A stretch of DNA of 64,000 nt from Elusimicrobiota bacterium (GTDB taxonomy: Bacteria > Elusimicrobiota > Elusimicrobia > Elusimicrobiales > UBA9959). Every line of letters starts with the position of its first letter. Position 1 is the first letter of the stretch. Positions 2 to 27,743 of the stretch are shown piece after piece. The position numbers and the translations under genes are program-made. The notes below the pieces were generated by a model. It worked only from the letters and a program-made list of their open reading frames with translations, was not told the DNA's origin and searched no databases. The stretch is from contig JAAYVG010000012.1 of the NCBI GenBank assembly GCA_012517285.1, positions 1-64,000 on the forward strand. The letters run 5' to 3'.

Positions 2-1255
2 ATCGACTATAATACAGGTATAACACTATCAACAGGGACATATCAGGTAATAGTTCAGCGTGAAATAAACGGCTCGGTAGTTAACTCAACGCCATTAGAA
101 TTCAGCATAACATATCCTGATATATATAATATAACCCCATCATCAGGGCCAATAGGCGTGCCGTTTACAATAACCGGCGAGGGTTTTGGCAATTATATAA
201 GCGGGAAGACAAATGTGCTGTTTGGTGATACGACGGCATATTTAACATTGTGGACGGATACACAGATAAAAGGGACAGTGCCCGGAACACTATTACCTGG
301 TGAATACACGATAAAAGTTAAAAGGGCAATAAACGGTGGCGAGCAAACATCATTATTTACTGAATTATTTGAAATAACGGTTCCTGTTATAGAAAGCATA
401 ACGCCATCGACACATGCTGTCTTTGGAGAATACACAATAACCGGGCAGAATTTCGGCAATTATGTAATCAATAAAACAAAAGTCCTTGTTAATGACACAA
501 CAAGCTATTTAACCCTCTGGACAGATAATCAGATAAAAGGCAAACTGCCGTATTTAACTGCTGGCAGTTATCCATTAACAGTAGAAAGGGATATAAATGA
601 CGGAGCAATCAGAAGCAACATTATATACATAAACATAATAGAACCTTATATAAACTCAATTAATCCGACAGGCGGTAATCCTGGGACAGAATTCATAATA
701 GGCGGGACAGGATTTGGCAATTATATAAGCGGGAAGACAAATGTGCTGTTTGGTGATACGACGGCATATTTGACATTATGGAGAGATACACAGATAAAAG
801 GCAAGGTTCCACAAATACCAGATGGGACATATTCAATCAAAGCCGAGAGAACAGGAACAGATAACCAGAAAATTCATTCGAATACCATCGAATACACAAT
901 AACTGGAGGTATAGGGACACAAAGCTTTAGAAGTAATATAGGTAGTGAGTTTATTTTAAGGGAGGTATATGTATTTCCAAATCCTGCTAAAAGGAATGAT
1001 AAACCGACATTTCATATAGAATGTGGGATAGCTAACGAAGTAAACATAAAGATATACACGGTATCAGGCAGGATAGCATATGAACACACAATTAGCGGTC
1101 TGCCTCAAATAATAGATGACGGCAATGGCGCAGATTATGCATATGAATGGACGGTAATGGAGAATCTGCCGAGCGGAGTATATTATTACATGGTGGAAGC
1201 CGCTAAGGGCGAAAACAAATTAAAATCTAATGGTAAATTTGCGGTACTGCGGTAG
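2..1255 (+). CDS. IPT/TIG-repeat surface/secreted protein with C-terminal T9SS-like sorting domain (5' partial)
   Basis: Frame open to the window edge (IDYNTGITLSTGTYQVIVQREING... precedes the listed ORF). ~88-aa IPT/TIG-like repeats (ITPSxG..G..FTITGxGFGNYISGKTNVLFGDTTAYLTLWTDTQIKGxVP). C-terminus VYVFPNPAKRNDKPTFHIECG...VNIKIYTVSGRIAYEH...YAYEWTVMENLPSGVYYYMVEA resembles a Por_Secre_tail/type A CTD. Confidence 0.8.
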   Translation: MDYNTGITLSTGTYQVIVQREINGSVVNSTPLEFSITYPDIYNITPSSGPIGVPFTITGEGFGNYISGKTNVLFGDTTAYLTLWTDTQIKGTVPGTLLPGEYTIKVKRAINGGEQTSLFTELFEITVPVIESITPSTHAVFGEYTITGQNFGNYVINKTKVLVNDTTSYLTLWTDNQIKGKLPYLTAGSYPLTVERDINDGAIRSNIIYINIIEPYINSINPTGGNPGTEFIIGGTGFGNYISGKTNVLFGDTTAYLTLWRDTQIKGKVPQIPDGTYSIKAERTGTDNQKIHSNTIEYTITGGIGTQSFRSNIGSEFILREVYVFPNPAKRNDKPTFHIECGIANEVNIKIYTVSGRIAYEHTISGLPQIIDDGNGADYAYEWTVMENLPSGVYYYMVEAAKGENKLKSNGKFAVLR

Positions 1256-1265
1256 CGGAGGGATT

Positions 1266-2168
1266 ATGGTGAAGCGAGCGCTAATAGTATCTTCCATACT
1301 TACTCTGATCTCCGGGCTTCAAGCAGAATATAACATAAACACGACGGCAGACTTCTTAAACATAGGCGTTAGCGCTAGATCATTTGGTATGGGCAATGCA
1401 TCTGTAGCCAATTCAAATGATATAGATGGCATCTGGACAAATCCGGTAAGCATATCCATGTTAGATTCGCCGCAGATAGGAATAATGCACAGCGAATTGT
1501 ATATTGGAACTGACCATAATTTTATAGGTATGGCTTTTCCATTGAAAGCGATAGGAAGCATAGGACTATCGTTGACAAGAATCAGTTATGGCGATATAGA
1601 AGGCAGGGATAAAAGCCGGCAGTCACTCAATAATTACAGCGCGTATGACCAATCCATAAACCTGACATTAACAAGAGCGATAACATCAAAGACAAAGGCA
1701 GGCATAAACTTGAAATCAGTAACAAGTCATATATCTGATGAGGAAGCAAAGTCATTAGTTGTGGATTTAGGGATGAGTTATGGATTTGGTAAAAATTTTA
1801 AAATAGGAATGACAGCTAGAAATATAGGCAGCGGGCTGAGGTATATAGACAGGAGCGAAAAACTTCCTTTTTCGATAACATTGGGTATGATGTATAATAT
1901 TATTAGCGGTTTTGAATTAGCGATGGATATAACCAGATTAATATATGACAGAGAAAACATCATAAATATAGGCAGTGAATACAGATTGATGGACGGATTT
2001 TATCTGAGAGCAGGATATATGAATAGCGCTTATATGGATGGCAAGATGGGTAGTATTATAACGAGTGGCGTAGGCATTAAGTTTATAGGGATCGAGATAG
2101 ACTGGGCGATGAGTCCTCAGAGTGAATTAGGCAGGATGCAGAGGTTGTCAATAAAAAAGAAGTTTTAG
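1266..2168 (+). CDS. PorV/PorQ-like (UPF0164-type) outer membrane beta-barrel protein
   Basis: Signal peptide then DFLNIGVSARSFGMGNASVANSNDIDGIWTNPVSISML, matching the PorV/UPF0164 N-terminal pattern (GxxARxxGMGxAxVAxxxDxxxxxxNPAxL). ATG at 1266 has an upstream GGAGGG; the ORF-track start at 1230 overlaps the previous gene. Confidence 0.75.
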   Translation: MVKRALIVSSILTLISGLQAEYNINTTADFLNIGVSARSFGMGNASVANSNDIDGIWTNPVSISMLDSPQIGIMHSELYIGTDHNFIGMAFPLKAIGSIGLSLTRISYGDIEGRDKSRQSLNNYSAYDQSINLTLTRAITSKTKAGINLKSVTSHISDEEAKSLVVDLGMSYGFGKNFKIGMTARNIGSGLRYIDRSEKLPFSITLGMMYNIISGFELAMDITRLIYDRENIINIGSEYRLMDGFYLRAGYMNSAYMDGKMGSIITSGVGIKFIGIEIDWAMSPQSELGRMQRLSIKKKF

Positions 2169-2297
2169 ATAGAGGGCAGTGAAAAAGTCTGTCTGCAATA
2201 GAAAAACAAAAGTGAGAAGTGTATTATTTACCATAACGGTATAACGCCAGAAACAGACCGACGCAGTTCGAATATAAAGTATTAGAGAGTTATAGTT

Positions 2298-2585
2298 ATG
2301 AATAAAGATAATTTCGTTTATGACGGTAATGGCGAGAGACTTGATATCTATTCTCAATTCTCAAGAGAGTTCATAAAGAAATATATAAACAGTGGCAGCG
2401 TGATGGTTAACGGAAAAAAGCCGAGCAATCGCTAATTCTAAAATCCCAAGATAAAATAAATATTATTTTGAATGATAGAGCCGATGATTTAAAATTCAAC
2501 CTTTCAGATATTAAGATCTATGAAGATAAGGATATTTTTGAAAGCCCGCAAAGCCAATGTAGTGCCCATGAAAAAGCGGCATTTT
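2298..2585 (+). pseudogene. Degraded RluD-like pseudouridine synthase N-terminal (S4) fragment
   Basis: MNKDNFVYDGNGERLDIYSQFSREFIKKYINSGSVMVNGKKPSNR* then, after a stop, KSQDKINIILNDRADDLKFNLSDIKIYEDKDIF and a shifted K-ANVV-like remnant. Resembles RluD RLDxFL..SR..IqklIkxGxVxVNGK...L...DIxIxYEDxDxxVVNKPAnVVVH; no catalytic domain follows. Confidence 0.5.
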
Positions 2586-2696
2586 AAAATTCCCCTATGA
2601 AAAAAGTTTTTTTATCTTAAAAAATGCGCAAGTCTGGTGTTTGTTGTATAAAACTTTTTCCTGGCTGTGTCTCAATACATATATCAAAAAAATAAG

Positions 2697-3737
2697 CTAT
2701 ATCATTCTTTTCTTATACATTATACCTGCGCATAGTGATATGAATATCGTATGAGGGATTATCAGTATCATTGGGGATGAGACAAGTTCAAGATCACCGA
2801 GCCTTTTTGACACTATCAAAACTGACCACATAAGAAGTGATGCAATGAGAGCCAGAGATATGGAAATGCTTTTGTTTCTGATCATGGATGTTTGAGCTAT
2901 TATAAAGGCAGCGAGAACAACTGTAATGTTTAAAAAGATCATTGCTAATTTAAAATATATGTAGTTAAATTCATACACTGGATTGAGGGAAAGCCTCCTG
3001 AGTTTTAGTGCTCTAATGAGAAGATCATATATGCTGTATGAGTTCGCATCGTTTAATTTTTCAATGAATATATCATCAGTGCCCGGGAGTGATGACACCT
3101 CCAAGGATTCAAAAGTTGATATCTTTATATCATACTCAAGATTCTTATCCTTTATGATAACCCCGTGTTTCACATCCCATATATTCTTATCATCATTCCA
3201 TGTCATGGAGCTAGCCTTTATTATAAATTTTTTTGACTCATCCTCAATATATACATCACTCATCTGATATTTGTTTTTAACATCAGATGCCATAAAATAT
3301 ACTCCATTAACCTTTATGTATGAGCTTAATATCTCGTTTTTCCTATTCTCGGCTCTTTTGTAAAGAGTGGCCACAAAAGGGTCAATAAAAAATATTGAAA
3401 GCAGTATGATCATCAGTGATGAGATGATAAGTGGTGATAAAAATACTGTCCTTCTGTATCCTGAGGCATAGACTGCCCTGTCCTCATTGTTTGCTGATAT
3501 GCTTGAAAAAAACATTATTGTAGCTATCAGTGTTATAAATGGAAGGACAAGATATATAAAGTATGGCGTTTGAAGGATTGCGGTTTTTAATGATGTTGAA
3601 AAATCTATGTTCTTTTTTGCAAGCTGGTTGGCTGTCTCAAAGAGATTTATTATAAAAACAAATATTGATACAACAGTAAACGATGATAGAAAGTAGCTTA
3701 AAAATTTTTTGATAATATATTTTGTAAGTATTTTCAT
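2697..3737 (-). CDS. LptF/LptG (YjgP/YjgQ) family LPS export permease
   Basis: MKILTKYIIKKFLSYFLSSFTVVSIFVFIINLFETANQLAKKN, TM topology and paired arrangement with the next gene. Confidence 0.85.
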   Translation of the reverse strand: MKILTKYIIKKFLSYFLSSFTVVSIFVFIINLFETANQLAKKNIDFSTSLKTAILQTPYFIYLVLPFITLIATIMFFSSISANNEDRAVYASGYRRTVFLSPLIISSLMIILLSIFFIDPFVATLYKRAENRKNEILSSYIKVNGVYFMASDVKNKYQMSDVYIEDESKKFIIKASSMTWNDDKNIWDVKHGVIIKDKNLEYDIKISTFESLEVSSLPGTDDIFIEKLNDANSYSIYDLLIRALKLRRLSLNPVYEFNYIYFKLAMIFLNITVVLAAFIIAQTSMIRNKSISISLALIASLLMWSVLIVSKRLGDLELVSSPMILIIPHTIFISLCAGIMYKKRMI

Positions 3738-4834
3738 TTGTGTTCAAGCTTCCCAAACCATATATAAAAAAAACATAAAGACATTATAATTAGAGGCAAA
3801 AAGTTTATGTAAGGAAAAAGACTATGATTCTTTCTTATCATCAGAGAGCATAATATATCTCCAAGATAGTAGAATATTATTATACCAACACTTATGATAA
3901 AACTGAAGTATTTGCTTTCCTTTTCATAATAGAAGGCAAAGGCTAATGAAAGAAGTGCCAGTATTAATATGGATAGATCTGTAGTAAAACGAGAGACAAG
4001 CTCTTCTCTCATACCAAAGATCTGATCTCTATCACCGATATGTTTTATCTGGTTCAGGATATCATTGGTTCGAAGGTATTTGGGTGGTATAGAGTATGTT
4101 TTCTCGTTGACTTCAAATGGAATAAAGGTCATATATTCTTTAAACATACCTGCATTATAAATGCTGTAATTATTTCTATCTATGGCTGATATCCTGCCAT
4201 CAATAAGATTTATCTTTATTCCCTGCTCCTTTAGAATTTCAAAGTATCCCTTTTGAGCAGATATTTTTACAAAGGATTTTAAACTGTTATTATTATCCAT
4301 ATCTCTATAAAGTATTACATTGCTCATCTCATTATCTGTTATTGAGGATGCATATATTGTAAAAGATGATATGGAGTCAAATGAGTTTGGCTTGATGTTT
4401 ATGTTTGTTATCCTGTTTGTCATTGTCCTTAATGATTCCCTTGACTTGAGGCTATAAACAGGGGAGATTGAGTTGTTGAGTATTGAAAAAAATATAAAAA
4501 GAAAGAATGAGAATATAAAGAAAAGTCTTGATATATCACGGTAGGAAAATCCTCCAACCCTTATGGCTATTATCTCTCCCCTTGCAGATAGCTCTCCAAC
4601 AGAAAAAAAGATTGAAAATATAAAAGAGAATGGTATGGATGTTTCAAGTATGGATGGTATGAGGTAGAACAACATCCTTGCAAGATAGTAAAGCGATATC
4701 CCCTGCATTATTCCCTTTTTGCTTATTGTCTGTATAAATGAGAATATAAAAAAGATACCTGTAAAGGCGAGCAATGAAATAAAAAAAAACCTTATAAAAT
4801 ACCTAAAAAATAATTTTTCTATCTTGAGCAGCAT
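3734..4834 (-). CDS. LptF/LptG (YjgP/YjgQ) family permease
   Basis: N-terminal TM, GELSARGEIIAIRVGGFSYRDISR (LptFG-type motif), 4-nt overlap with the downstream permease. Confidence 0.85.
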   Translation of the reverse strand: MLLKIEKLFFRYFIRFFFISLLAFTGIFFIFSFIQTISKKGIMQGISLYYLARMLFYLIPSILETSIPFSFIFSIFFSVGELSARGEIIAIRVGGFSYRDISRLFFIFSFFLFIFFSILNNSISPVYSLKSRESLRTMTNRITNINIKPNSFDSISSFTIYASSITDNEMSNVILYRDMDNNNSLKSFVKISAQKGYFEILKEQGIKINLIDGRISAIDRNNYSIYNAGMFKEYMTFIPFEVNEKTYSIPPKYLRTNDILNQIKHIGDRDQIFGMREELVSRFTTDLSILILALLSLAFAFYYEKESKYFSFIISVGIIIFYYLGDILCSLMIRKNHSLFPYINFLPLIIMSLCFFYIWFGKLEHK

Positions 4835-4995
4835 ATTTATTTAATAAACTTAATAACTATTATATATAATTTATTTATATATAAGAGGCTCGCTCGGTTA
4901 GGATTTTATTAAATTTCCTGATGAAATCTAATAACAGAGAGGAGGTTCGTATCAATTTTATTATTTAATTGCTGAGTTGTGATTACAGTTAATTT

Positions 4996-7900
4996 ATGCC
5001 TAAATTGTTGTTTATATGGTTTTTTTTTATATTCAATTCTAATCTCTTTTCATTTGATTTCAATGATTTTTTGAACAGCGTATCTGATTATGATGATCTC
5101 AATGCTAAAACAAGTGATTATATAAAGATAGACGATGTTATAAAGAGTGATAACAAAGAAATTAATACTGAAAAAGATTATAATGATTATGATGACTGGG
5201 ATTATGCACCTGATAAATGGAATAGCTTTGTTAACAGGCTTGAAAATGGTGAGATAAATTTTAATGATAAGGAGAGTGTTTCAGTCTCTACTGTTACACT
5301 TTCAACAGCACCGGTTTCACTGCCACCTCAGGTTGAGTTCCTTGATAGCGGAACATCGCTTAATGTTACAGGAAGAAAGGTTATCGGAATCAACTATTCA
5401 GGCAAAAAATATATCAATCCTCAAACCAATGTTACAAGAGAGAAGTCAACAAGCCTTTTTGATATAACACAGGAGCTTCAGATAAGGATGCAGGGGAAGG
5501 TTGGTGATAAGATAAATGTTAATGTTGATTATGATGACACAAAAAGCGATAAACAGGATATATCAATAACCTATCAGGGCGATCCTCAGGAGGTGGTCCA
5601 GAACATATCATTTGGTGATATAGATCTATCTCTTCCTGCCACAGAGTTCGTATCATATAACAAACAGCTTTTTGGAATAAGGGCTGATATAAAAACTGGT
5701 GGTTTTAAAAGCACATTCATAGGCTCAAGAACCAAGGGCGAGACCAAGACAAAGCAGTTTATTGGCAACACTCAGTTCCAGTCGACAAATCTTTCAGACA
5801 CATCATATATAAGGCGAAAATACTATGACATAACATTCGGTGATATAACAAGACTTCCTATTAAGGCTGGCAGTGAAAAGATTTATATAGATCAGCAGAC
5901 TAATCAGGTTGTTGACAACATAATCATATCATCAATAACTGCTTATGACCTTGTCTCTGGTGCTTCATACTCTGGGAGATTTAAGCTTTTGACCCGTGGT
6001 ATAGATTATACAATAGATTATAATAAAGGACTTGTTACATTAGCACAGACTCTTAACTCTGTTGATGTTCTGATAGTTGATTATCAGAACTACAGCGGTA
6101 GCTGGCTCCATGATGAGGGAACTTTCGGCTACAAACTTTTAAAAACATATAATGACATATATATAACTGGTTCTGGAGAAAAGGGCTGGAACAACGAAGT
6201 AAAGACATATTATTATATTGGTCAAACAAACATAGTAAGGGATGATGGCCATGGGAATTTTACTTTAAAGGTTCAGAATCTAAACAAACAGGATATAGGT
6301 GCTTCATTAAATCCTCCACAGAAATATCCTGATAATATAGAGGTGGACTTTGAGCAGGGAATAGTTCACCTTTTAAGTCCTTTTGGTTCTGAGGCAGATC
6401 CAACTATACCTGATCCTTTAACATATTCTCAAAGCCCTGTTTCAAACAGGATTATTCATATTGAGTACTATTATAAATTAAAGACTTTTATGATTGAATC
6501 AGGCATAGTTTTAAACTCTGAAATCATAAAGGTGGATGGGGTCAAGCTTACTAAGAATGTTGATTACTATATAGACTATGACTCAGGTTTTATAACCTTT
6601 TATAACACAGATAAGATAGGCCAGACAAGCGTTATAGATATGGTTTATGAGGTTTCACCATTTGGAAACTCATCACAGACACTTGCAGGTGGAAGGGTTT
6701 CATACGATATATCAAACAGTGTGAGCCTTGGGGCCACCGCCATATATCAGGGATCAAGTAAGTCAAAGAGTGCTCCAATGATAACAGATCTTGCATCAAG
6801 CCTCTTGGTTTATGATGGTGATATGCAGATAAAAAACCTTAATATCTTTGGTATGAGGACATCCCTCTCTGGTGAGATGGCTCAGTCAAAGTTAAATCCA
6901 AATATAAACGATTATGCAATCATAGACAATATGGAGGGGGTAAAGCAGGAGGACAGTGCATCAATGGATAAAAATTATTGGTATATAGCATCAAATCCTT
7001 CAAACATACCATCTCATACTGATTCTATAAACTGGGATACTGAGGAGATAAACTCAAGGGATATAAATCCAAATTCACCAACTGATTCAAAACAGAGTGT
7101 CCTTGTCATAAACTATGATTTCAGTGTATCAACGGAGGTTTCACTTACTTATGTTTTCTCAAAAACAGGGCTTGACTTCACTCAGAAAAACTCATTTGAA
7201 ATGACGGTTGTAGGCGATAACAATACTGCTGGGCCTGATGTAAACCTTCATTTTGGAGATGTTAATGAAGACTCAGATCAGTCAGGAGGAATGACTCTCG
7301 TATGTTCCGGTGGCAATATACTCTATGGTGCACCTAAAACTGAGGATATAAACTGTGATAACATCCTATCCCCTTCAGAGGATAATGGCTGGGAGTATTA
7401 TTATAACTACTCAGGCAGTGTTTCTACCAGAAGATTCGGTTCCAAGAATGGTATTATAGACACTCAGGACCTTGATGGCAATGGAAGGATGGATGCTCAA
7501 AACCCTTGGGTTGGTGGTGATTATGGTTATCTAACAAATACGAAGTTTATTGATATAACAGCTGGTGGCGGCACTTACACAAACAATATAAACTTTTCAA
7601 ATTGGCATAACCTTGTATATCCTGTTGTTATAGCATCAAGCGATTCATATAAGTGGTCCAATATAAAAGAAGTGAGGATATCACTCAAAAAATCATCACT
7701 CACTCCAGTAAGGGGAAGAATAAAAATAGCAAGGATTGCAGCTGTTGGAAATACATGGAATGTCTTTTTATCGACCTATACATCTGAGAATATAAAGGTT
7801 CTTGCTGTTAACAACATAGATAATACAGATTACACGCCGATATATAATGTTGGTGGTGAGATATCAGGTATATATGAAGACCTTTATGGTAGTGTCTCGA

Positions 7901-10293
7901 GCCAGAAGAGTGATACTGGTGATAAAACTATATCAGAACAGTCAATATCAATAAACTTTTCAAGTGTTACCAAGGATTCAAGAAACTATATATACCGAAA
8001 ATTTTCTAATTCAATAGATATATCTCAGCATAAAAGATTGAGGTTTATGGTTTACAATGGTAAGGACAATGGCTCTCTAAGATTTTATTTAAAGTTAGGT
8101 GATGAAAACAATTATTATAAGGTCTCAGTTCCACTTGACAACACAACGATTGGCTGGAGGGTATATAACATAGATCAAAACGATGAGAACAATGATGGGG
8201 TTGCTGAGACATGGTCAGCAGGCTTTCCTGTTAAGATATCTACCTCAGGAACAGTGTCACTCCAACAGATACCACAGATAATAGCCGGTGTGGAGGTAAG
8301 CGACAACGACACCAATTCTTATAGTGGGATGATCTACCTCAATGAGATACATCTTTCAAATCCTATAACAAGAACAGGAAGTGCAAGGAAGGTTTCTGGT
8401 GATTTTGAGATACCTGGATTTATGACATTTGGTGGGAAGCACAGATATGTTGACAGGGCATTTATGACCCCGGTAAGTGCTGTAACAAATCAGGACAATG
8501 AACAGAACACTGGATATCTGAATCTTTTAAAACCAGCATTTTTCCCAACAAGTTATACATATTCAAGACAGAACACAAACACACCAAATGTATATCTAAC
8601 TGGGAATAACAATCTTGTCAATATGCTTCAGAACGGTAAAGTAAAAAAACAGGATATAACTGCTCAGGGATTGCTTAGCCTGTGGATATTTCCAAAGACC
8701 AATCTCAACTATACAAACAATAACGTTAAATATGATCTTATAAACAGAGAGGATAACAAAAACACATACACAGCCTCCACAAACTATCAGCCTCCTTTGA
8801 ATCTTTTTATCATTCCAAAGAACATAAATTTTTCATACACCTACATAGATAACAAGGTGGAATATCTTCCGCCTTACATATCTACTTCCGACTACTATGA
8901 TACCTATGAAAAGACATACAGTTATTCCACAAGATTTGATCTGGAGCCGGTAAGTTTCTGGAAGATAACACCATCCTATTCGTTGAGCAAGGTTAATGAA
9001 ACAAGAATTAATCTTTATGATACATCAAATCCTTTTGGATATCCAAAATCAATGCAGCAGAGTGCTGGCTTTGATTCAAGCTTGAAGCTCTTTAAATGGT
9101 TCAATCCGTCGTTTAATTATTCAGTGACAACCAATGAAAACAACAATCTTAGCATAACAACAGTGACATTGGCACAACAGAGCACAACATATAATCCCGG
9201 TGATATAAAAACAGTGAACAGAAATGCTCAGGGCTCTGTTAATCTTTCAATAAATATAAATGATCTTTTGCCTAAATCAAAGCTTTTGAGATCTATGATA
9301 ATAACATCAAACTATCAGCTTCAGGATGGAGATGTATGGCAGAATGTCGAAAAGGATTATAATTCAAAGAACAAACTCTGGATAAGGACACCATTAAAAC
9401 CAAAAAATCCTTTTGCTCAAAGGACATCTGCAACAATCAGAGACAGCTATAACTCGACATTGCGATGGCAACCTTTTGAGTCGTTTGTCTTTAACACAAG
9501 ATGGAAATCACTTTCAACCATACTAATAACAAATAATTATAACTACTCTGTTCAGAAAAACTATACAAACGATGTCTATACTGAAACTGTTAATAAAACC
9601 CTACCAGATCTGGTATTTACGGTATCTCAGTTAGAGTATCTAACAGGTTTAAAGAGATGGGCATCGGATATAACAATGAACATAAAATATTCATACAACA
9701 CAAATGAGGTTATAAAAACGAGTCTTGATAAAACAAACTCTTTTGGCACGGACCTGAGGTTCAATCTGTTGAATTATATCAACACATATATGACTTACAA
9801 TAATAAGACGACAGAGAAGAGGGATCTAACTATCAACCAGATAACAGGATATACAAAAAATCAAACATTTTCAGTTCAGGGGACATTTGATGTGAAACAA
9901 TATAGATTTACACCCAAGCTTGATTACTCAAACGATTATGCGGAATCAACATTAAAAACAGTTACATCAAATACAACAATTATAACACCATCAGTCCTCA
10001 TCAAAACAGATTTTAGACTGCCCAAAAAGTTTAAACTACCATTTTTAAATGAGATGATGCTTGATAACAGAATAATATGGACAAACAGTATAAGCTATTC
10101 AATTAAAAAATCACCAGTGTCTGTCAGTGACAATAACAGATTGTTTTCTATTAACTCAACCGCTGATATAGAACCGAGCCAGAATCTAAGAATAAGCTTT
10201 AACCTTCTTATTCAGAGATATTGGAGCAAATACCTTAAAGAAGATGATTACCTCTCATATCAGATAGGAACTAATATGATACTTCAGTTCTAA
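4996..10293 (+). CDS. sprA: SprA-like T9SS outer-membrane translocon / cell surface protein
   Basis: 1765 aa with signal peptide. SprA-type segments: FDITQELQIRMQGKVGDKINVNVDYDDTKSDKQDISITYQGDPQEVVQNISFGDIDLSLP..FVSYNKQLFGIRADIKTG, YAIIDNMEGVKQ, and APKTEDINCDNILSPSEDNGWEYYYNYSG (cf. TEDINxDNTLxExE). C-terminal beta-strand-rich barrel. Confidence 0.85.
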   Translation: MPKLLFIWFFFIFNSNLFSFDFNDFLNSVSDYDDLNAKTSDYIKIDDVIKSDNKEINTEKDYNDYDDWDYAPDKWNSFVNRLENGEINFNDKESVSVSTVTLSTAPVSLPPQVEFLDSGTSLNVTGRKVIGINYSGKKYINPQTNVTREKSTSLFDITQELQIRMQGKVGDKINVNVDYDDTKSDKQDISITYQGDPQEVVQNISFGDIDLSLPATEFVSYNKQLFGIRADIKTGGFKSTFIGSRTKGETKTKQFIGNTQFQSTNLSDTSYIRRKYYDITFGDITRLPIKAGSEKIYIDQQTNQVVDNIIISSITAYDLVSGASYSGRFKLLTRGIDYTIDYNKGLVTLAQTLNSVDVLIVDYQNYSGSWLHDEGTFGYKLLKTYNDIYITGSGEKGWNNEVKTYYYIGQTNIVRDDGHGNFTLKVQNLNKQDIGASLNPPQKYPDNIEVDFEQGIVHLLSPFGSEADPTIPDPLTYSQSPVSNRIIHIEYYYKLKTFMIESGIVLNSEIIKVDGVKLTKNVDYYIDYDSGFITFYNTDKIGQTSVIDMVYEVSPFGNSSQTLAGGRVSYDISNSVSLGATAIYQGSSKSKSAPMITDLASSLLVYDGDMQIKNLNIFGMRTSLSGEMAQSKLNPNINDYAIIDNMEGVKQEDSASMDKNYWYIASNPSNIPSHTDSINWDTEEINSRDINPNSPTDSKQSVLVINYDFSVSTEVSLTYVFSKTGLDFTQKNSFEMTVVGDNNTAGPDVNLHFGDVNEDSDQSGGMTLVCSGGNILYGAPKTEDINCDNILSPSEDNGWEYYYNYSGSVSTRRFGSKNGIIDTQDLDGNGRMDAQNPWVGGDYGYLTNTKFIDITAGGGTYTNNINFSNWHNLVYPVVIASSDSYKWSNIKEVRISLKKSSLTPVRGRIKIARIAAVGNTWNVFLSTYTSENIKVLAVNNIDNTDYTPIYNVGGEISGIYEDLYGSVSSQKSDTGDKTISEQSISINFSSVTKDSRNYIYRKFSNSIDISQHKRLRFMVYNGKDNGSLRFYLKLGDENNYYKVSVPLDNTTIGWRVYNIDQNDENNDGVAETWSAGFPVKISTSGTVSLQQIPQIIAGVEVSDNDTNSYSGMIYLNEIHLSNPITRTGSARKVSGDFEIPGFMTFGGKHRYVDRAFMTPVSAVTNQDNEQNTGYLNLLKPAFFPTSYTYSRQNTNTPNVYLTGNNNLVNMLQNGKVKKQDITAQGLLSLWIFPKTNLNYTNNNVKYDLINREDNKNTYTASTNYQPPLNLFIIPKNINFSYTYIDNKVEYLPPYISTSDYYDTYEKTYSYSTRFDLEPVSFWKITPSYSLSKVNETRINLYDTSNPFGYPKSMQQSAGFDSSLKLFKWFNPSFNYSVTTNENNNLSITTVTLAQQSTTYNPGDIKTVNRNAQGSVNLSININDLLPKSKLLRSMIITSNYQLQDGDVWQNVEKDYNSKNKLWIRTPLKPKNPFAQRTSATIRDSYNSTLRWQPFESFVFNTRWKSLSTILITNNYNYSVQKNYTNDVYTETVNKTLPDLVFTVSQLEYLTGLKRWASDITMNIKYSYNTNEVIKTSLDKTNSFGTDLRFNLLNYINTYMTYNNKTTEKRDLTINQITGYTKNQTFSVQGTFDVKQYRFTPKLDYSNDYAESTLKTVTSNTTIITPSVLIKTDFRLPKKFKLPFLNEMMLDNRIIWTNSISYSIKKSPVSVSDNNRLFSINSTADIEPSQNLRISFNLLIQRYWSKYLKEDDYLSYQIGTNMILQF

Positions 10294-10311: not shown

Positions 10312-10968
10312 ATGGATTTTTTAATAAAAGCTGTTGATATAGCACTCCATTTGGATAAGTACCTTGAAATAATTATATTGTCATACTCCAGCTGGGTTTA
10401 TATAATGGTTTTTTTCATTATATTTATGGAAACAGGTTTTGTTGTAACACCATTTTTCCCCGGTGATTCCCTGCTTTTTACATGTGGGGCTTTTGCTGCT
10501 ATGGGAATGCTTGGTTTCTACAAGACATTTTTTATTATACTTATAGCAGCTGTGTTAGGTGATACAGCAAACTATCATATAGGAAAATTTTTTGGTGATA
10601 AGCTCTTTGAAAAATATCCAAGAATTTTTAAAAAGGAGTATATAGAAAAGACTCACAGGTTTTATGAAAAATATGGTGCAAAGACCATAGTTATAGCAAG
10701 GTTTGTTCCGATAGTGAGAACCTTTGCCCCTTTCTTGGCCGGGGTTGGCTATATGAGCTATAAAAAATTTATAACATACAATATAACTGGGGCAGTGTTG
10801 TGGTGTCTTATAGTCTACCTTGGTGGATATTTTTTTGGTAACATACCGGTTGTTAAAAACAATTTTTCGTTTGTTGTGATATCAATAATAGTTATATCGG
10901 TTCTTCCTATGGTGGTGGAGTACTTAAGAAATATGAAGAAAACCAGAGTAGGCCCAATGTCCTATTAA
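10312..10968 (+). CDS. DedA family membrane protein
   Basis: FMETGFVVTPFFPGDSLLFTCGAFAAMG...GDTANYHIGKFFG...FYEKYGAKTIVIARFVPIVRTFAPFLAGVGYMSY is diagnostic of DedA. Confidence 0.92.
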   Translation: MDFLIKAVDIALHLDKYLEIIILSYSSWVYIMVFFIIFMETGFVVTPFFPGDSLLFTCGAFAAMGMLGFYKTFFIILIAAVLGDTANYHIGKFFGDKLFEKYPRIFKKEYIEKTHRFYEKYGAKTIVIARFVPIVRTFAPFLAGVGYMSYKKFITYNITGAVLWCLIVYLGGYFFGNIPVVKNNFSFVVISIIVISVLPMVVEYLRNMKKTRVGPMSY

Positions 10969-11030: not shown

Positions 11031-11855
11031 ATGAAGAAAGCAATGATAGCTCTGAGTGTGCTGGTGTTCTCAGGATTTAATATTTATTGCCAGACGCCTG
11101 AAGAAATAGTAAATGATACTGTAAAAAAATTAAACTCATCCAAGTTTTCATCAGATATGAATAAATCTGCGGAGATAGATCCTAAGTTTTATACATTAAA
11201 GGAAAGTGTAAGGGTTGATATAAATGAGCTTCAAGAAACCAATGCTCCTGATTACTCAAAGATTTTTGTTGATCCTAAAAAAGGTCTTGTGGATGATACG
11301 CTTGTTGCGGTTGAAAAGATTGTTAATATAGCTGATAAGGTATGGCAGATGGTAAAGGATAACAAGCCTGTTGTGAATATAGATTCAAGATATGCTGTAG
11401 CACTGCCGAAGGGTGTAACTGCCGCAAGCGATTTAAGCAATTGGAGCAAGCCAAAGAGTTATTTGATCTCCTTTTATTTTGAGAATTTATACGGTATGGA
11501 TGTGGTGAATGTGTCTTACAAGGTGACGTATGTTTATGGCGGAAGCTATAATGGAACTGGAAAATATCTTGCAGCCGTGTGGGCTATACCTGTATCTGTT
11601 GATGTGATGTGGGGCTTTTCTTTTACCATGTCAGCACTTGTCCCTGATGCAACTGTTGTAAATATTGGAACTGATTCAAAGCCTGTTGCAGCCCTTCAAT
11701 TAAAGGTATCATGGGCAGCATCAAGTGCGTTAAAAGAAATGGATGGCACTGCTGTCTATTACATTCAGGGAGATGGATACTTTGAAGAATTGGCAAGCCC
11801 TTTCAGATCAAGAAAGACCAATATTAGCAGTTTGAACAATATAAGTTTAGATTAA
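11031..11855 (+). CDS. Secreted protein of unknown function, paralog of the following gene
   Basis: Signal peptide (MKKAMIALSVLVFSGFNIYCQ). Shares DVVNVSYKVTYVYGGSYNGTGKYLAAV..PVSVDVMWGF...VPDATVVNIGTDSKPVAALQ...YYIQGDGYFEELASPF with 11866..12702. Confidence 0.8.
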   Translation: MKKAMIALSVLVFSGFNIYCQTPEEIVNDTVKKLNSSKFSSDMNKSAEIDPKFYTLKESVRVDINELQETNAPDYSKIFVDPKKGLVDDTLVAVEKIVNIADKVWQMVKDNKPVVNIDSRYAVALPKGVTAASDLSNWSKPKSYLISFYFENLYGMDVVNVSYKVTYVYGGSYNGTGKYLAAVWAIPVSVDVMWGFSFTMSALVPDATVVNIGTDSKPVAALQLKVSWAASSALKEMDGTAVYYIQGDGYFEELASPFRSRKTNISSLNNISLD

Positions 11856-11865
11856 GGAGGAATAG

Positions 11866-12702
11866 ATGAAAAAAACATTATTAACTGTTGCGATGCTTTC
11901 AATCTGCGCTGCTGGGGTAATGGCGCAGGGAAGCGGTGATTATTCTATAGATGAGTCAAGCATAAGGATAGAGGTTATAAATGATAATGCTGCTGTAAAG
12001 AAGGGTGGAATTCCGTTAAATCCGGTTCCAGCACCCGCTGACCTACCAAAACCACCTGAGGTAACTCCTCCACCTCCACCTTCAAGCCCTTCAATAGGCA
12101 CTGGTAGTTATGCAGATGGTTTGAATAATGTCAATGCTACGCTTGATACAATAGATAAAATAATCAATCTGGCTCAAAAGGTATGGGATATAATAAAAGA
12201 GAATCAGCCTGTGGTTGATATAAGTGTCAACTATGCAAATGCTGTTCCATATGGACTATCGCACTGGACACAGCTTCAGGGATGGTCAAGGCCTGCCACA
12301 AAGAAGTATTCATTTTTTGCAAAAAACAAGATGGGAACAGATGTGGTTAAGGTTACATATCAGGTAACATATACATATGGTGGAAACTTGAATGGTAAGG
12401 GAAAGTTTTTAACAGGTGTTGCAATAGAACCTATAAATGTTGAAACAGCTTGGGGATACAAGGTAAACCTCAAGGCAGAGGTTCCTGATTCAACAATAGC
12501 AAACGTTGGCACAAGCGATGACCCAATTGCTGCTATGCAGGTTCAGCTTAAATGGATCATCCACACTCCTTTACAGGATACCCAGCAGAAAGCTATATAC
12601 TATGTTCAGGGAGATGGCTTGATACAGGAGATAGGAACTCCTTTTAAGGGAGAGGATGGAGCTAAGAAAGCGATTGATAGAATGAGTTCTGAGAAGTTTT
12701 AA
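11866..12702 (+). CDS. Secreted protein of unknown function, paralog of the preceding gene, Pro-rich linker
   Basis: Signal peptide, PVPAPADLPKPPEVTPPPPPSSPS linker, then the same C-terminal domain as 11031..11855; RBS AGGAGG. Confidence 0.8.
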   Translation: MKKTLLTVAMLSICAAGVMAQGSGDYSIDESSIRIEVINDNAAVKKGGIPLNPVPAPADLPKPPEVTPPPPPSSPSIGTGSYADGLNNVNATLDTIDKIINLAQKVWDIIKENQPVVDISVNYANAVPYGLSHWTQLQGWSRPATKKYSFFAKNKMGTDVVKVTYQVTYTYGGNLNGKGKFLTGVAIEPINVETAWGYKVNLKAEVPDSTIANVGTSDDPIAAMQVQLKWIIHTPLQDTQQKAIYYVQGDGLIQEIGTPFKGEDGAKKAIDRMSSEKF

Positions 12703-14638: not shown

Positions 14639-16440
14639 AGAAGAAAAATGGATTGAAACAGGTAATTCTATGGTTGTTGGTTTTCATTTTTATAGCAGGT
14701 ATATATAACAGTCTTAGTGTTATGAACACAGAAAAGGATATACCTTACTCCTATTTTAAAGCAAAGCTAAAAAATAAGGAGGTTAAAAAGGTCTCTATAG
14801 CTCCTGATATGATAAGGGGTGAGATGATAGAGAACAACAAGACGGTCAGGTTTAAAACCATACCCCTTAGTGATCCTGATCTGATAAAGGATATGGAGCA
14901 AGCCTCCGTTGATAATTTTTCAGGTGTTCCAGACAGAAGCTGGGTAACGACACTGCTTTTTAACATTGGCTGGATTCTCATCTTTATACTTGCATGGTGG
15001 TTTATATTTTACAGACAGGCAAATATGGCAGGCAAACAGGCTATGAGTTTTGCAAAATCGAAGGCAAGGCAGATTGATAACAAGAAGAAAAAGATTACTT
15101 TTAAAGACGTTGCAGGCTGCGAAGAGGCTAAGGAAGAACTGATTGATATAGTTGATTATCTTAAAAATCCTGATAAGTATAAAACCCTCGGTGGGACACT
15201 GCCAAAGGGGGTGTTGCTCTACGGTGCACCTGGCACAGGCAAAACACTTCTTGCAAAGGCCGTTGCAGGTGAAGCCGGGGTGGAGTTCTTTAGCTCGAGT
15301 GGATCTGAATTTGTTGAGATGTTTGTTGGTGTTGGTGCGGCAAGGGTAAGGGATCTCTTTGAAAGAGCGAAAAAAAGTGCCCCTGCCATAATATTTGTTG
15401 ATGAGCTTGATGCTGTTGGAAGACACAGATTTTCTGGTATTGGTGGTGGGCATGATGAGAGAGAACAAACATTAAATCAGCTCCTTATAGAGTTAGATGG
15501 CTTTGAAACGAAGGAGGGCATAATATTAATAGCGGCAACAAACAGACCTGATGTTCTTGATCCTGCGCTGTTGAGGCCTGGAAGATTTGATAGAAGGGTT
15601 AATGTTCCTGTTCCAGATATAAAGGGAAGGCTTGAAATATTGAAGGTCCATTCATCAAAGATAAAGATGGATGAGAGTGTTGACCTTAATATAATAGCTC
15701 AGAGAACCCCAGGCTTTGTTGGAGCTGACCTTGCAAATGTTGTCAATGAGGCAGCAATAATAGCAGCTAAAAATAACAAGGAAAAGACAGAGTTTATAGA
15801 TTTTGAGGAAGCAATAGAGAAAACTATAGCCGGTCCTCAGAGAAAGAGCAGGGTTATATCAGAAAAGGAAAAAAGAATTGTTGCATATCATGAGGCAGGC
15901 CATGCGCTTGTAGCTAAACTGCTTAAGGACGTTGATCCTGTTCATAAAATATCAATAATTCCAAGGGGCCCCGCTCTCGGTTATACATTGCAGCTTCCCT
16001 TAGAGGATAAGTATCTTACTTCTAAATCTGAGATAATATCAAAGCTTTCAATATTTCTTGCTGGAAGGGCAAGTGAGGAGGTGGTCTTTGGTGAGATAAC
16101 AACAGGTGCTGGTGATGATCTTTCAAAGGCTACAAACTATGCCCAGAAGATGGTTATGGAGTTCGGAATGAGTGAAAAGATAGGTCCTGTATCTTTAAAA
16201 AAGGATGATAATGAAGTCTTTCTTGGCAGGGATATAGTAAAACAGCACACATATTCAGATGAAACTGCAAAGAGCATAGACGATGAGATAAAAAGAATAA
16301 TCAACGATTGCTATTACAAAGCTAAAAACATACTTATTGAGAACAAACAGATCTTGGATAAAGTTGTTGCTGTTTTAATGGATAAGGAGACAATAAGTGG
16401 GGAAGAGCTTGATCTGATAATAAATAATGCAAATAGTTAA
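14635..16440 (+). CDS. ftsH: ATP-dependent zinc metalloprotease FtsH
   Basis: Walker [23 protein letters not shown] zinc site; ATGA overlap with hpt. Confidence 0.98.
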
Positions 16441-25549: not shown

Positions 25550-25750
25550 ATGGAAAATAAAAAATTTTATCTATCAAACAATAAAAAAATAGCTGGTGTG
25601 TGTGCTGGCATTTCAGAGTATTTTAATATTGATGTAGTTTTTGTAAGAGTTTTATTCATTGCTGGAGTTGTTTCAGGAGTTCTTTCCTCGCTTTTTATTT
25701 TAACTTATATAGCCTTTTGGATTGTAGCTCCAAGAAAAGAGAATGTTTGA
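25550..25750 (+). CDS. PspC domain protein
   Basis: KIAGVCAGISEYFNIDVVFVRVLFIAGVVSGVLSSLFILTYIAFWIVAP. Confidence 0.92.
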   Translation: MENKKFYLSNNKKIAGVCAGISEYFNIDVVFVRVLFIAGVVSGVLSSLFILTYIAFWIVAPRKENV

Positions 25751-25757
25751 TTAAAAG

Positions 25758-25848
25758 ATTTTGTGTGGGGGAAATTGGGTTTGATTCCCGTGCTGCCCCG
25801 CAACGGTAAAGCTCCTTTAAGGAGATGAGCCCGGACTATCACACAAAA
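25758..25848 (+). promoter_or_regulatory. Cobalamin riboswitch
   Basis: TTGTGTGGGGGAAATTGGGTTTGATTCCCGTGCTGCCCCGCAACGGTAAAGC...GAGCCCGGACTATCACACAA: B12-box-like core closed by TTGTGTG/CACACAA. Confidence 0.88.
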
Positions 25849-25928
25849 AAATATCCTTCGTGGGAGGGTTGTGCGTTTATATACAGTGCCTTTCCGTGAA
25901 GCATTGGATAACCTCGCGGGAGGCACTT

Positions 25929-27743
25929 GTGGAAAAGATATTCTTGTTGTTAGTGTTTTGTTTACTCTTTGTATCCTCTCTAAAATCTGGAGATACAGAG
26001 ATATTTTTATCACTTAAAAGAGATAGCACATCCTACCAGTTGCCATATTCTTACGGCAGTTCTGTTGAACATTACAAAGTTAAGGAAGATAAAATTACTG
26101 ATTCATTAAAACTATCACCATCAGTTTTTGTGAAAGAAAATTCAGAGGATTATGGAGTTTCGCTTATTTCAATAAGGGGTTTTACATCAAATCAAACTTC
26201 TGTTGTTTATGATGGTTTCAAGTTTCCAAAGGATCTTACTCAAACATATGATCTTTCCATACTTCCACCTGCATCGTCATCTGAGGTATATCTTTTAAAA
26301 GGTGGGTGGTCATCGGTTTATGGCTCTGACTCTGAGGGAGGTGTGGTTGCAATAAAAACTCAGGATTTAAAACCAAACACTCAAACCGCTGTATTAAATG
26401 TAGAAAGGGGAAGCTATAACTCCGATAGATACTATATAAAATCAGGATTTTCAAAGGATAAATTTTTCATAATAACTGAGGCTGAAAATTATTCTTCAAA
26501 TGGTTTTCAAGAAAATTCTTCCGCAAACAAAAATTCTCTTATTATGAAATTGGGTTATGATTTTGATGATTATGGGAAGCTTACTCTAAGCGGTTTTGGA
26601 GTGAAGCTTAAAACCGATCTGCCATCAGGTACACCTGTTGATGTATCCCAATTCAACGGTAAGAGAGAAAAAAAAGCAAACACCCCTTATGACTGGCAGG
26701 ATAATGAAAATATTTTTTTGAGTTTTAAACATCAGTTAGAGATAGATGACACAAAATTAACAATTTCATACGCAAGAAACAATATAACTAAAAATGCATA
26801 TCAGTGGTCAGCTCTTACAAATATAAAGACATACTCAGATGATTTTATGCTCAATATGAGCTTTAATCAGCTCAATCTTGGTTTTGAGCTGGATAAAAAC
26901 TATTTAAGATCAGATGATTATGGGAATCACTCCATAGAAAACTATGGATATTTTATAAACTCAAATAAGAATATCGGAAGTGACTTAAAAGTTTACTGGT
27001 ATTTAAGATATGATAATAACAAAAATTATTCTGATGTTTTAAGTCACAGGTTTGCGACTGAATATTTCCTTACAGAGGACATAAGCCTCTCATATGCTGT
27101 TTCAAAATCATGGAGGAGTCCATCATTTGCTGATATATACGGTAGTCAGATCTACTGGATTCCACCAAATCCTTATATAAAGCCTGAAAAATCGCTTGGG
27201 AATGAACTCTCAATGAAGCTATCTCTGAACAATTTTGAACTGACAGTTTCAGGCTATTATTACGATATAACTGATAAGATCAGCTATGATCCACTTACAT
27301 ATAGGGCTGTGAATTTAGCTGAAGGATATAATAAGGGTATTGAGGGCCTATCATCATATAATATAGATCTATTCAAATTTTCAATCGGTGGGAATATTAT
27401 GAGGGTTATGGGCAGGGAAAGCGGCGGATATAAAACTCTTCCATACATACCCGAGTATAAGTTTGTTTTTATAACACAGTATCAGAATATAAAACTTTTT
27501 GATATAGTATTTAAAACAGAAAGATATGGCAAATATTTTACTATGCCAGAAAAAAAAGGGAAAGAAGTTCCTTCATATACCATTTCATCAATAAGTATTA
27601 CAAGAAAGATATCTGATTTAAAGATATTTTTATCAGTTGATAATATATTTAATGAAAGGTATGCTACAAATGCCGATAGCTTTAATGGATACTTCCCAGG
27701 AAAACCAAGAAACATCAATGCTGGGGCAAGCATAAACTTCTGA
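25929..27743 (+). CDS. TonB-dependent outer membrane receptor (BtuB-like)
   Basis: Plug domain (VSLISIRGFTSNQTSVVYDGF..LLKGGWSSVYGSDSEGGVVAIKT) and C-terminal barrel ending in aromatic SINF; downstream of the cobalamin riboswitch; GTG 25929 followed by signal peptide EKIFLLLVFCLLFVSSLKS. Confidence 0.9.
   Translation: MEKIFLLLVFCLLFVSSLKSGDTEIFLSLKRDSTSYQLPYSYGSSVEHYKVKEDKITDSLKLSPSVFVKENSEDYGVSLISIRGFTSNQTSVVYDGFKFPKDLTQTYDLSILPPASSSEVYLLKGGWSSVYGSDSEGGVVAIKTQDLKPNTQTAVLNVERGSYNSDRYYIKSGFSKDKFFIITEAENYSSNGFQENSSANKNSLIMKLGYDFDDYGKLTLSGFGVKLKTDLPSGTPVDVSQFNGKREKKANTPYDWQDNENIFLSFKHQLEIDDTKLTISYARNNITKNAYQWSALTNIKTYSDDFMLNMSFNQLNLGFELDKNYLRSDDYGNHSIENYGYFINSNKNIGSDLKVYWYLRYDNNKNYSDVLSHRFATEYFLTEDISLSYAVSKSWRSPSFADIYGSQIYWIPPNPYIKPEKSLGNELSMKLSLNNFELTVSGYYYDITDKISYDPLTYRAVNLAEGYNKGIEGLSSYNIDLFKFSIGGNIMRVMGRESGGYKTLPYIPEYKFVFITQYQNIKLFDIVFKTERYGKYFTMPEKKGKEVPSYTISSISITRKISDLKIFLSVDNIFNERYATNADSFNGYFPGKPRNINAGASINF

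What the first reader, a model, noticed from the sequence alone, without database searches (positions are those of the whole stretch)
2..10293. Apparent type IX secretion set: Por-type CTD cargo, PorV-like shuttle and SprA-like translocon within 10 kb
Seen: a TIG-repeat protein ending in a Por_Secre_tail-like domain (VYVFPNPAKRND..VNIKIYTVSGR..YEWTVMENLPSGVYYYMVEA), immediately followed by a PorV/UPF0164-like barrel, and 2.8 kb later a 1765-aa SprA-like protein on the same strand. Established: SprA (Sov) is the T9SS outer-membrane translocon, PorV its partner/shuttle, and type A CTDs the signal; T9SS is best described in Bacteroidota. Inference: this lineage has a T9SS-like pathway. Its SprA is shorter than the >2000-aa Bacteroidota versions, so it may be a minimal or divergent variant. 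No porL/M/N/K/P/U is visible here.
Basis: partly seen in the sequence, partly recalled or inferred. Interest (0 to 1): 0.85.

Follow-up and report, generated by a model that had tools for sequence, protein, structure and literature searches.

The report
Elusimicrobial type IX-like secretion without motor

Summary
The window belongs to an Elusimicrobiota MAG. ORF 4996-10293 is a real, shortened SprA/Sov translocon: profile and predicted fold both pick out only the solved F. johnsoniae SprA structures at high significance. 1266-2168 is a PorV/PorQ-family barrel and 2-1255 ends in a type-A-like C-terminal sorting domain (CTD). Full-length SprA occurs in 130 of 150 genomes sampled across the phylum, usually beside lptFG and comF. 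The own genome has about 10 CTD proteins and 11-12 PorV matches; nine of ten CTD genes lie directly upstream of a PorV gene, and the pairing recurs across the phylum. CTD and PorV sequence distances correlate. SprA, PorV and CTDs are lost together in reduced Endomicrobia. Models for the GldL/GldM motor, GldN ring and PorU sortase found no credible member apart from one C25 genome, although no Bacteroidota genome was available as positive control for the motor models. I therefore do not file it as a T9SS proper, but as a T9SS-like SprA pathway with dedicated shuttles, no recognisable motor or sortase, and CTDs probably kept as anchors. Function is inferred, not shown. Held papers describe T9SS as limited to the Fibrobacteres-Bacteroidetes-Chlorobi group.

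The parts
2..1255 (+). Cargo: TIG/IPT-repeat surface protein, truncated at 5' by the contig end
   Evidence: Pfam TIG 2.8e-31, three domains; contig C32 begins at window base 1
968..1252 (+). Type-A-like C-terminal sorting domain of the cargo (PNP motif, GxY motif, terminal basic residue)
   Evidence: Alignment A2 with 27 relatives; A2 profile hits PorZ CTD 5m11 2.1e-15 and the SprA-bound substrate CTDs 8glk_D, 8glj_D; TIGR04183 6.4e-4
1266..2168 (+). Dedicated PorV/PorQ-family outer-membrane barrel, directly downstream of its cargo
   Evidence: NF033709 149.8 bits over cut-off; PorQ model scores above PorV model; family profile A4 hits PorV of the SprA complex 6h3i_F, 1.9e-37
2697..3737 (-). 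LptF/LptG-type LPS export permease (closer to LptG), conserved divergent neighbour of sprA
   Evidence: PF03739 1.5e-34, TIGR04408 2.5e-21; conserved next to sprA
3734..4834 (-). LptF/LptG-type LPS export permease (closer to LptF), conserved divergent neighbour of sprA
   Evidence: PF03739 1.2e-45, TIGR04407 2.1e-34
4996..10293 (+). SprA/Sov-family outer-membrane translocon, 1765 aa, hydrophobic N-terminal signal-peptide-like stretch, C-terminal Phe
   Evidence: TIGR04189 2.6e-36; profile vs PDB SprA 6h3j/6h3i 2.8e-35; AlphaFold fragments 600-1765 (pLDDT 87) and 100-1240 (pLDDT 81) match 8gl8/8gl6/6h3i/6h3j; 130/150 genomes of the phylum
10312..10968 (+). DedA-family protein; sits where comF lies in most other families of the phylum; neighbour, probably not part
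   Evidence: NF008102 2e-73

Best explanation
Elusimicrobiota use a SprA-based, T9SS-like outer-membrane export pathway. Cargos (adhesin-like TIG, fn3, Kelch and carboxypeptidase-regulatory repeat proteins, and subtilase-, M4- and M6-type proteases) cross the inner membrane by Sec, dock their C-terminal Ig-like CTD at SprA, and are collected at its lateral opening by a PorV/PorQ-type barrel. Unlike the known system, where one PorV serves all type A CTDs, each cargo here usually has its own PorV/PorQ-type barrel encoded directly downstream. With no PorU sortase found, the CTD is most likely kept, and the cargo-barrel pair stays in the outer membrane as a non-covalent anchor, as PorZ does with PorQ and type B cargos with SprF. 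No GldLM-type motor is recognisable. Energy for barrel exchange must come from an unrecognised motor, from the ExbBD-TonB or TolQR-type complexes, or from replacement of the shuttle alone. Shown here: gene content, homology, gene pairing, co-loss and sequence co-variation of CTD and PorV. Inferred: secretion, specificity, anchoring and energetics.
For: SprA. PorV. CTD: including matches to the substrate CTDs captured inside the SprA translocon (8glk_D, 8glj_D). Pairing: in the own genome 9 of 10 CTD genes lie directly upstream of a PorV gene on the same strand; in one top PorV per genome from 40 other genomes, 25 have a CTD gene one to three genes upstream on the same strand, against 6 CTD genes among 1089 background genes; in two hit lists, 31 of 34 CTD/PorV neighbours are in the order CTD then PorV, none on opposite strands, median gap 152 bp. 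CTD and PorV distances correlate (own 9 pairs r=0.41, p=0.019; 32 pairs r=0.61, p=0.0002). Co-loss: all 11 genomes without PorV lack SprA; CTDs absent in 16 of 20 SprA-negative genomes. No sortase or motor found. Anchoring model: PorQ models outscore PorV models for most of these barrels, the best CTD match is PorZ, and PorZ keeps its CTD on PorQ (PMC10202324).
Against: No secretion has been shown in any Elusimicrobiota. The motor and sortase models come from Bacteroidota and no T9SS-positive genome was available as a control for GldL, GldM or GldN, so diverged versions could be missed. GldK/PorK, SprE, PorD, Plug and SprT were not tested. Fifteen of the 40 top PorV genes had no CTD gene in the 1.8 kb upstream; in gut-type f2 genomes CTDs are few or undetected although SprA is kept. 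Co-loss is clustered in one family and not corrected for phylogeny. Correlated CTD and PorV distances could reflect co-inheritance of an operon without physical specificity.
Confidence: 0.72

Rival explanations
1. It is a complete T9SS whose motor, ring and sortase have diverged beyond the Bacteroidota models. Energy comes from a GldLM-like motor that these searches missed.
For: TIGR04189 itself scores the Elusimicrobiota SprA below its cut-off and Pfam SprA_N misses it, so family models lose sensitivity across this distance. GldM and GldN searches rang in no control genome. One sub-cut-off GldL hit exists in G033.
Against: Models of the same kind do detect SprA, PorV and CTD across the same distance, while GldL, GldM and GldN find nothing credible in 60-100 genomes. 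The C25 search can ring in this phylum (G006, 1.2e-31) but does so in only 1 of 100. No GldLM-like pair is conserved beside sprA.
Confidence: 0.25
2. SprA here has been turned to another job, for example LPS or lipid surface assembly together with the neighbouring LptF/LptG, and the CTD-PorV pairs work without SprA as self-contained surface modules.
For: sprA is conserved next to lptF-lptG (at least 51 of 73 loci with a divergent copy). In f2 genomes SprA persists with few or no detectable CTDs.
Against: SprA, PorV and CTD go missing together. The CTD profile matches domains solved inside the SprA pore and the PorV profile matches the SprA-bound PorV. f2 genomes still keep PorV genes. LptD-type barrels match the SprA model far more weakly than SprA does (1.3e-5 against 3.9e-37).
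Confidence: 0.08
3. Chance or contamination: Bacteroidota DNA in a metagenome bin.
For: The genome is a 52-contig assembly.
Against: The window holds an rRNA operon on the same contig. Orthologous SprA with shared synteny is found in 130 of 150 genomes of the phylum, including single-contig genomes, and named relatives are labelled Elusimicrobia or unnamed bacterium.
Confidence: 0.01

Closest known systems
Type IX secretion system of Bacteroidota, SprA/Sov translocon with PorV (F. johnsoniae, P. gingivalis)
   Same: SprA-family translocon, PorV-family barrel, type-A-like CTD with PNP and GxY motifs, signal-peptide cargos.
   Different: SprA about 1765 aa against about 2400; no GldL, GldM, GldN or C25 sortase found; many PorV paralogues each beside a cargo gene, whereas type A CTDs all rely on one PorV in F. 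johnsoniae (PMC12618676); outside the Fibrobacteres-Bacteroidetes-Chlorobi group (PMC11205867).
Type B CTD cargos with dedicated PorP/SprF shuttles
   Same: One cargo, one barrel encoded directly downstream; large adhesin-like cargos (PMC12618676, PMC9143113).
   Different: Here the CTD is type-A-like and the barrel is PorV/PorQ-family; PorP-family models ring only below their cut-off, in 25 of 60 genomes and not in the own genome.
PorZ-PorQ pair of the P. gingivalis attachment complex
   Same: CTD closest to PorZ (5m11, 2.1e-15); most barrels score higher with PorQ than with PorV models; a retained CTD held by its own barrel (PMC10202324).
   Different: PorZ-PorQ serves the PorU sortase, which was not found here; in Elusimicrobiota the arrangement is multiplied over many cargos.
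CTD proteins in Poribacteria
   Same: TIGR04183-like domains on repeat proteins outside Bacteroidota.
   Different: There no structural genes of the Por system were found (PMC3909097); here SprA and PorV are present.

Membership tests
SprA/Sov translocon family | Sequence match to SprA and its fold over the length | tested here: met
   TIGR04189 2.6e-36 (below curated cut-off), PDB profile hit 2.8e-35, fold hits 3.9e-37 and 7.3e-51
PorV/PorQ family | NF033709 above cut-off | tested here: met
   149.8 bits against 90 for the window protein; 7 own-genome genes over cut-off
Type IX secretion system | SprA translocon plus PorV | tested here: met
Type IX secretion system | Several cargos with conserved CTD in the genome | tested here: met
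   7 of 10 own hits over the TIGR04183 cut-off; 121 of 150 genomes with the A2 profile
Type IX secretion system | GldL/GldM (PorL/PorM) proton-driven motor | tested here: not met
   GldM 0 of 60, GldL 1 of 100 sub-cut-off; no Bacteroidota positive control available
Type IX secretion system | GldN (PorN) of the periplasmic ring | tested here: not met
   0 of 60; no control rang
Type IX secretion system | GldK (PorK), SprE (PorW), PorD, Plug, SprT | not tested
Type IX secretion system | PorU C25 sortase | tested here: not met
   1 of 100 genomes; own genome none
Type IX secretion system, type B branch | PorP/SprF shuttle | tested here: inconclusive
   25 of 60 genomes below cut-off, none in own genome; at least one hit overlaps a PorV match
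Type IX secretion system | SprA-dependent secretion of CTD proteins | not testable with these tools
   needs an experiment

The most novel reading that the evidence does not exclude
A SprA translocon that works without any GldLM-type motor or PorU sortase: loading of a dedicated, co-made PorV/PorQ barrel pulls each cargo out of the pore and leaves as a one-use anchor, so barrel replacement does the work the motor does in Bacteroidota. This could be a simpler and possibly older form of type IX secretion.
Probability: 0.3. Interest if true: 0.92.

Novelty: new variant of a known kind. Interest (0 to 1): 0.8.

Why it matters
The T9SS is described as restricted to Bacteroidetes (PMC4793230) or to the Fibrobacteres-Bacteroidetes-Chlorobi group (PMC11205867). 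A translocon found throughout Elusimicrobiota extends the known range and gives this little-studied phylum a route for adhesins and proteases to the cell surface. If no motor is used, it separates the pore-and-shuttle core from the energy chain and makes the question of what the motor does directly testable. One-cargo-one-PorV pairing also offers a large natural set for learning what determines CTD-shuttle specificity.

Tried and rejected
Pfam SprA_N (PF14349) in the own genome: no hit and no control rang, so uninformative. phmmer of the single SprA sequence against PDB: only a chance hit; the profile was needed. The idea that the cargo-PorV-SprA closeness is itself a conserved T9SS locus was rejected: across families sprA sits with lptFG and comF, and PorV adjacency is not conserved. 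The orphan PorV-like genes at C3 and C50 and the 174-aa CTD protein at C47:79 kb have no partner. PorP-family hits were not counted as evidence for type B secretion. The ExbBD-TonB cluster near one cargo pair was kept only as a lead. Wider search for SprA in other phyla was not possible: the one named scan returned only the 80 closest loci.
Full report
WHAT IS THERE. The window is contig C32:1-64000 of a 1.96-Mb, 52-contig genome, 97% complete. The phylum is Elusimicrobiota: the best 80 relatives of SprA with record titles are labelled Elusimicrobia, Elusimicrobium, Elusimicrobiales and the like, or unnamed bacterium. Reading from the start: a 5'-truncated TIG-repeat protein with a C-terminal sorting domain (2-1255), a PorV/PorQ-family barrel (1266-2168), two LptF/LptG-type permeases on the minus strand (2697-4834), and a 1765-aa SprA (4996-10293) followed by a DedA gene.

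SprA IS REAL. TIGR04189 matches at 2.6e-36 but below its curated cut-off, and Pfam SprA_N does not ring. A profile of 17 Elusimicrobiota homologues (A1) finds one thing in the PDB, F. johnsoniae SprA (6h3j 2.8e-35, 6h3i 4.5e-35). AlphaFold models built only from window and named-locus sequences reached mean pLDDT 87 (residues 600-1765, 49 sequences) and 81 (100-1240, 44 sequences). Foldseek ranks the four SprA structures first for both (3.9e-37 to 2.9e-31, and 7.3e-51 to 1.1e-37). The next matches are at 3e-6 and 1e-7. TM-scores are only about 0.5; each model is only part of the protein, which would limit a global superposition. The homologue is present in 130 of 150 genomes spread over the phylum, mostly as a full-length open frame; the 20 without it are all in one family (f10), mostly small genomes.

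SYNTENY. In 73 SprA loci with enough flank, at least 51 have a divergent lptF/lptG gene within three genes, a few more have it on the same strand, and 50 have comF downstream (a simple gene caller, so lower bounds). One single-contig genome (G034, 1,643,562 bp) shows the same comF-sprA / lptF-lptG order. From memory that length is that of Elusimicrobium minutum, and 1,588,979 bp (G023) that of Endomicrobium proavitum. These identities are my recollection, not a tool result.

PorV AND CARGO. The own genome has 12 PorV-family matches (11 genes, 7 over cut-off) and 10 CTD hits with TIGR04183 (7 over cut-off), or 11 with the sharper profile. Nine of the ten CTD genes lie directly upstream of a PorV gene on the same strand. 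The nine cargos include TIG, fn3, Kelch and carboxypeptidase-regulatory repeat proteins, a subtilase and an M4-type protease. The CTD profile hits the PorZ CTD (2.1e-15), PorU (3.2e-7) and the substrate domains solved inside the SprA pore (8glk_D 1.6e-5, 8glj_D 5.1e-5), and also the related Ig domain of FlgD. The PorV profile hits PorV of the SprA complex (6h3i_F, 1.9e-37).

PAIRING ACROSS THE PHYLUM. For one top-scoring PorV from each of 40 other genomes, 25 have a CTD-bearing gene one to three genes upstream on the same strand; among 1089 genes around SprA only 6 carry a C-terminal CTD. In the hit lists CTD/PorV pairs lie within 3 kb: 31 in the order CTD then PorV, three reversed at about 2.5 kb, none on opposite strands, median gap 152 bp. 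Distances between CTDs and between their PorVs correlate. This fits cognate pairs, but also simple co-inheritance of two-gene units.

CO-LOSS. All 11 genomes without a PorV match also lack SprA. Of 20 SprA-negative genomes, 16 have no CTD, two have a single marginal hit, and two (G118 in 280 contigs, G144 78% complete) have real CTDs and probably incomplete assemblies. Fisher p is 1.1e-11 for PorV and 1.6e-10 for CTD, without phylogenetic correction and with all SprA losses in one family. In gut-type f2 genomes SprA is kept while CTDs are few or undetected.

WHAT IS MISSING. GldM 0 of 60, GldN 0 of 60, GldL one sub-cut-off hit in 100, C25 sortase domain in 1 of 100, PorP/SprF only below cut-off in 25 of 60 and none in the own genome. 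No Bacteroidota genome with a T9SS was among the controls, so absence of the motor is likely but not proven. Only two ExbB/TolQ-type genes exist in the genome: one beside a small ExbD/TolR-like gene (C44), the other in an ExbB-ExbD-ExbD-TonB run about 1.8 kb from one CTD/PorV pair.

HOW IT PROBABLY WORKS. Sec export, CTD docking at SprA and collection by a PorV-type barrel follow from homology with the solved system (PMC10994853). In F. johnsoniae all type A CTDs use one PorV, whereas type B cargos each use a SprF barrel, often encoded directly downstream (PMC12618676). Here type-A-like CTDs show the type B arrangement. PorQ models outscore PorV models for most of these barrels, the nearest CTD is PorZ, and PorZ keeps its CTD on PorQ (PMC10202324). 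With no PorU found, the simplest reading is that cargos keep their CTD and stay attached to their own barrel. In F. johnsoniae, removing the motor traps substrates on the translocon (PMC10994853), so a motor-free system needs another way to release the loaded barrel; this is the main open point.

NOVELTY. No held paper links Elusimicrobiota with SprA, PorV or a T9SS in this sense (several hits are word-start or reference-list matches, and not every listed paper was opened). A survey with 13 profiles found T9SS only in Bacteroidetes (PMC4793230). Poribacteria were reported to have CTDs but no Por structural genes (PMC3909097). The library holds only open-licence papers, so an earlier report elsewhere is possible.

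Noticed in passing
window 25745-27743: An AdoCbl (B12) riboswitch (50.4 bits, just over its gathering score) runs into the start of a gene for a TonB-dependent receptor (Plug and barrel domains), probably a B12 outer-membrane transporter.
   Followed up: partly
window 11031-12702: Two neighbouring, similar secreted-looking proteins (274 and 278 aa) with no significant Pfam or NCBIfam match; similar genes lie beside sprA in the same-genus genome (L053 1309-3048).
   Followed up: no
L065:14992-16635, L067:2444-4144, L068:1389-3083, L070:14288-16015: In four families a 547-575-aa M6-type peptidase with a C-terminal CTD lies next to the lptFG-sprA block.
   Followed up: partly
L215 and L074 (G000:C47:37128-39731): ExbB-ExbD-ExbD-TonB run about 1.8 kb from a CTD cargo whose PorV carries a C-terminal TPR extension; one of only two ExbB/TolQ-type loci in the genome and a candidate energy source.
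   Followed up: partly
G006, G012, G024, G041, G078: Some Elusimicrobiota show very large PorV and CTD expansions (up to about 60 PorV and over 100 CTD first-look candidates per genome), suggesting large cargo repertoires.
   Followed up: no
window 14920-15468, 41523-41957 and other minus-strand ORFs: Long antisense ORFs over ftsH and over what looks from ORF size and order like rpoC are mechanical and show no sign of being genes.
   Followed up: no
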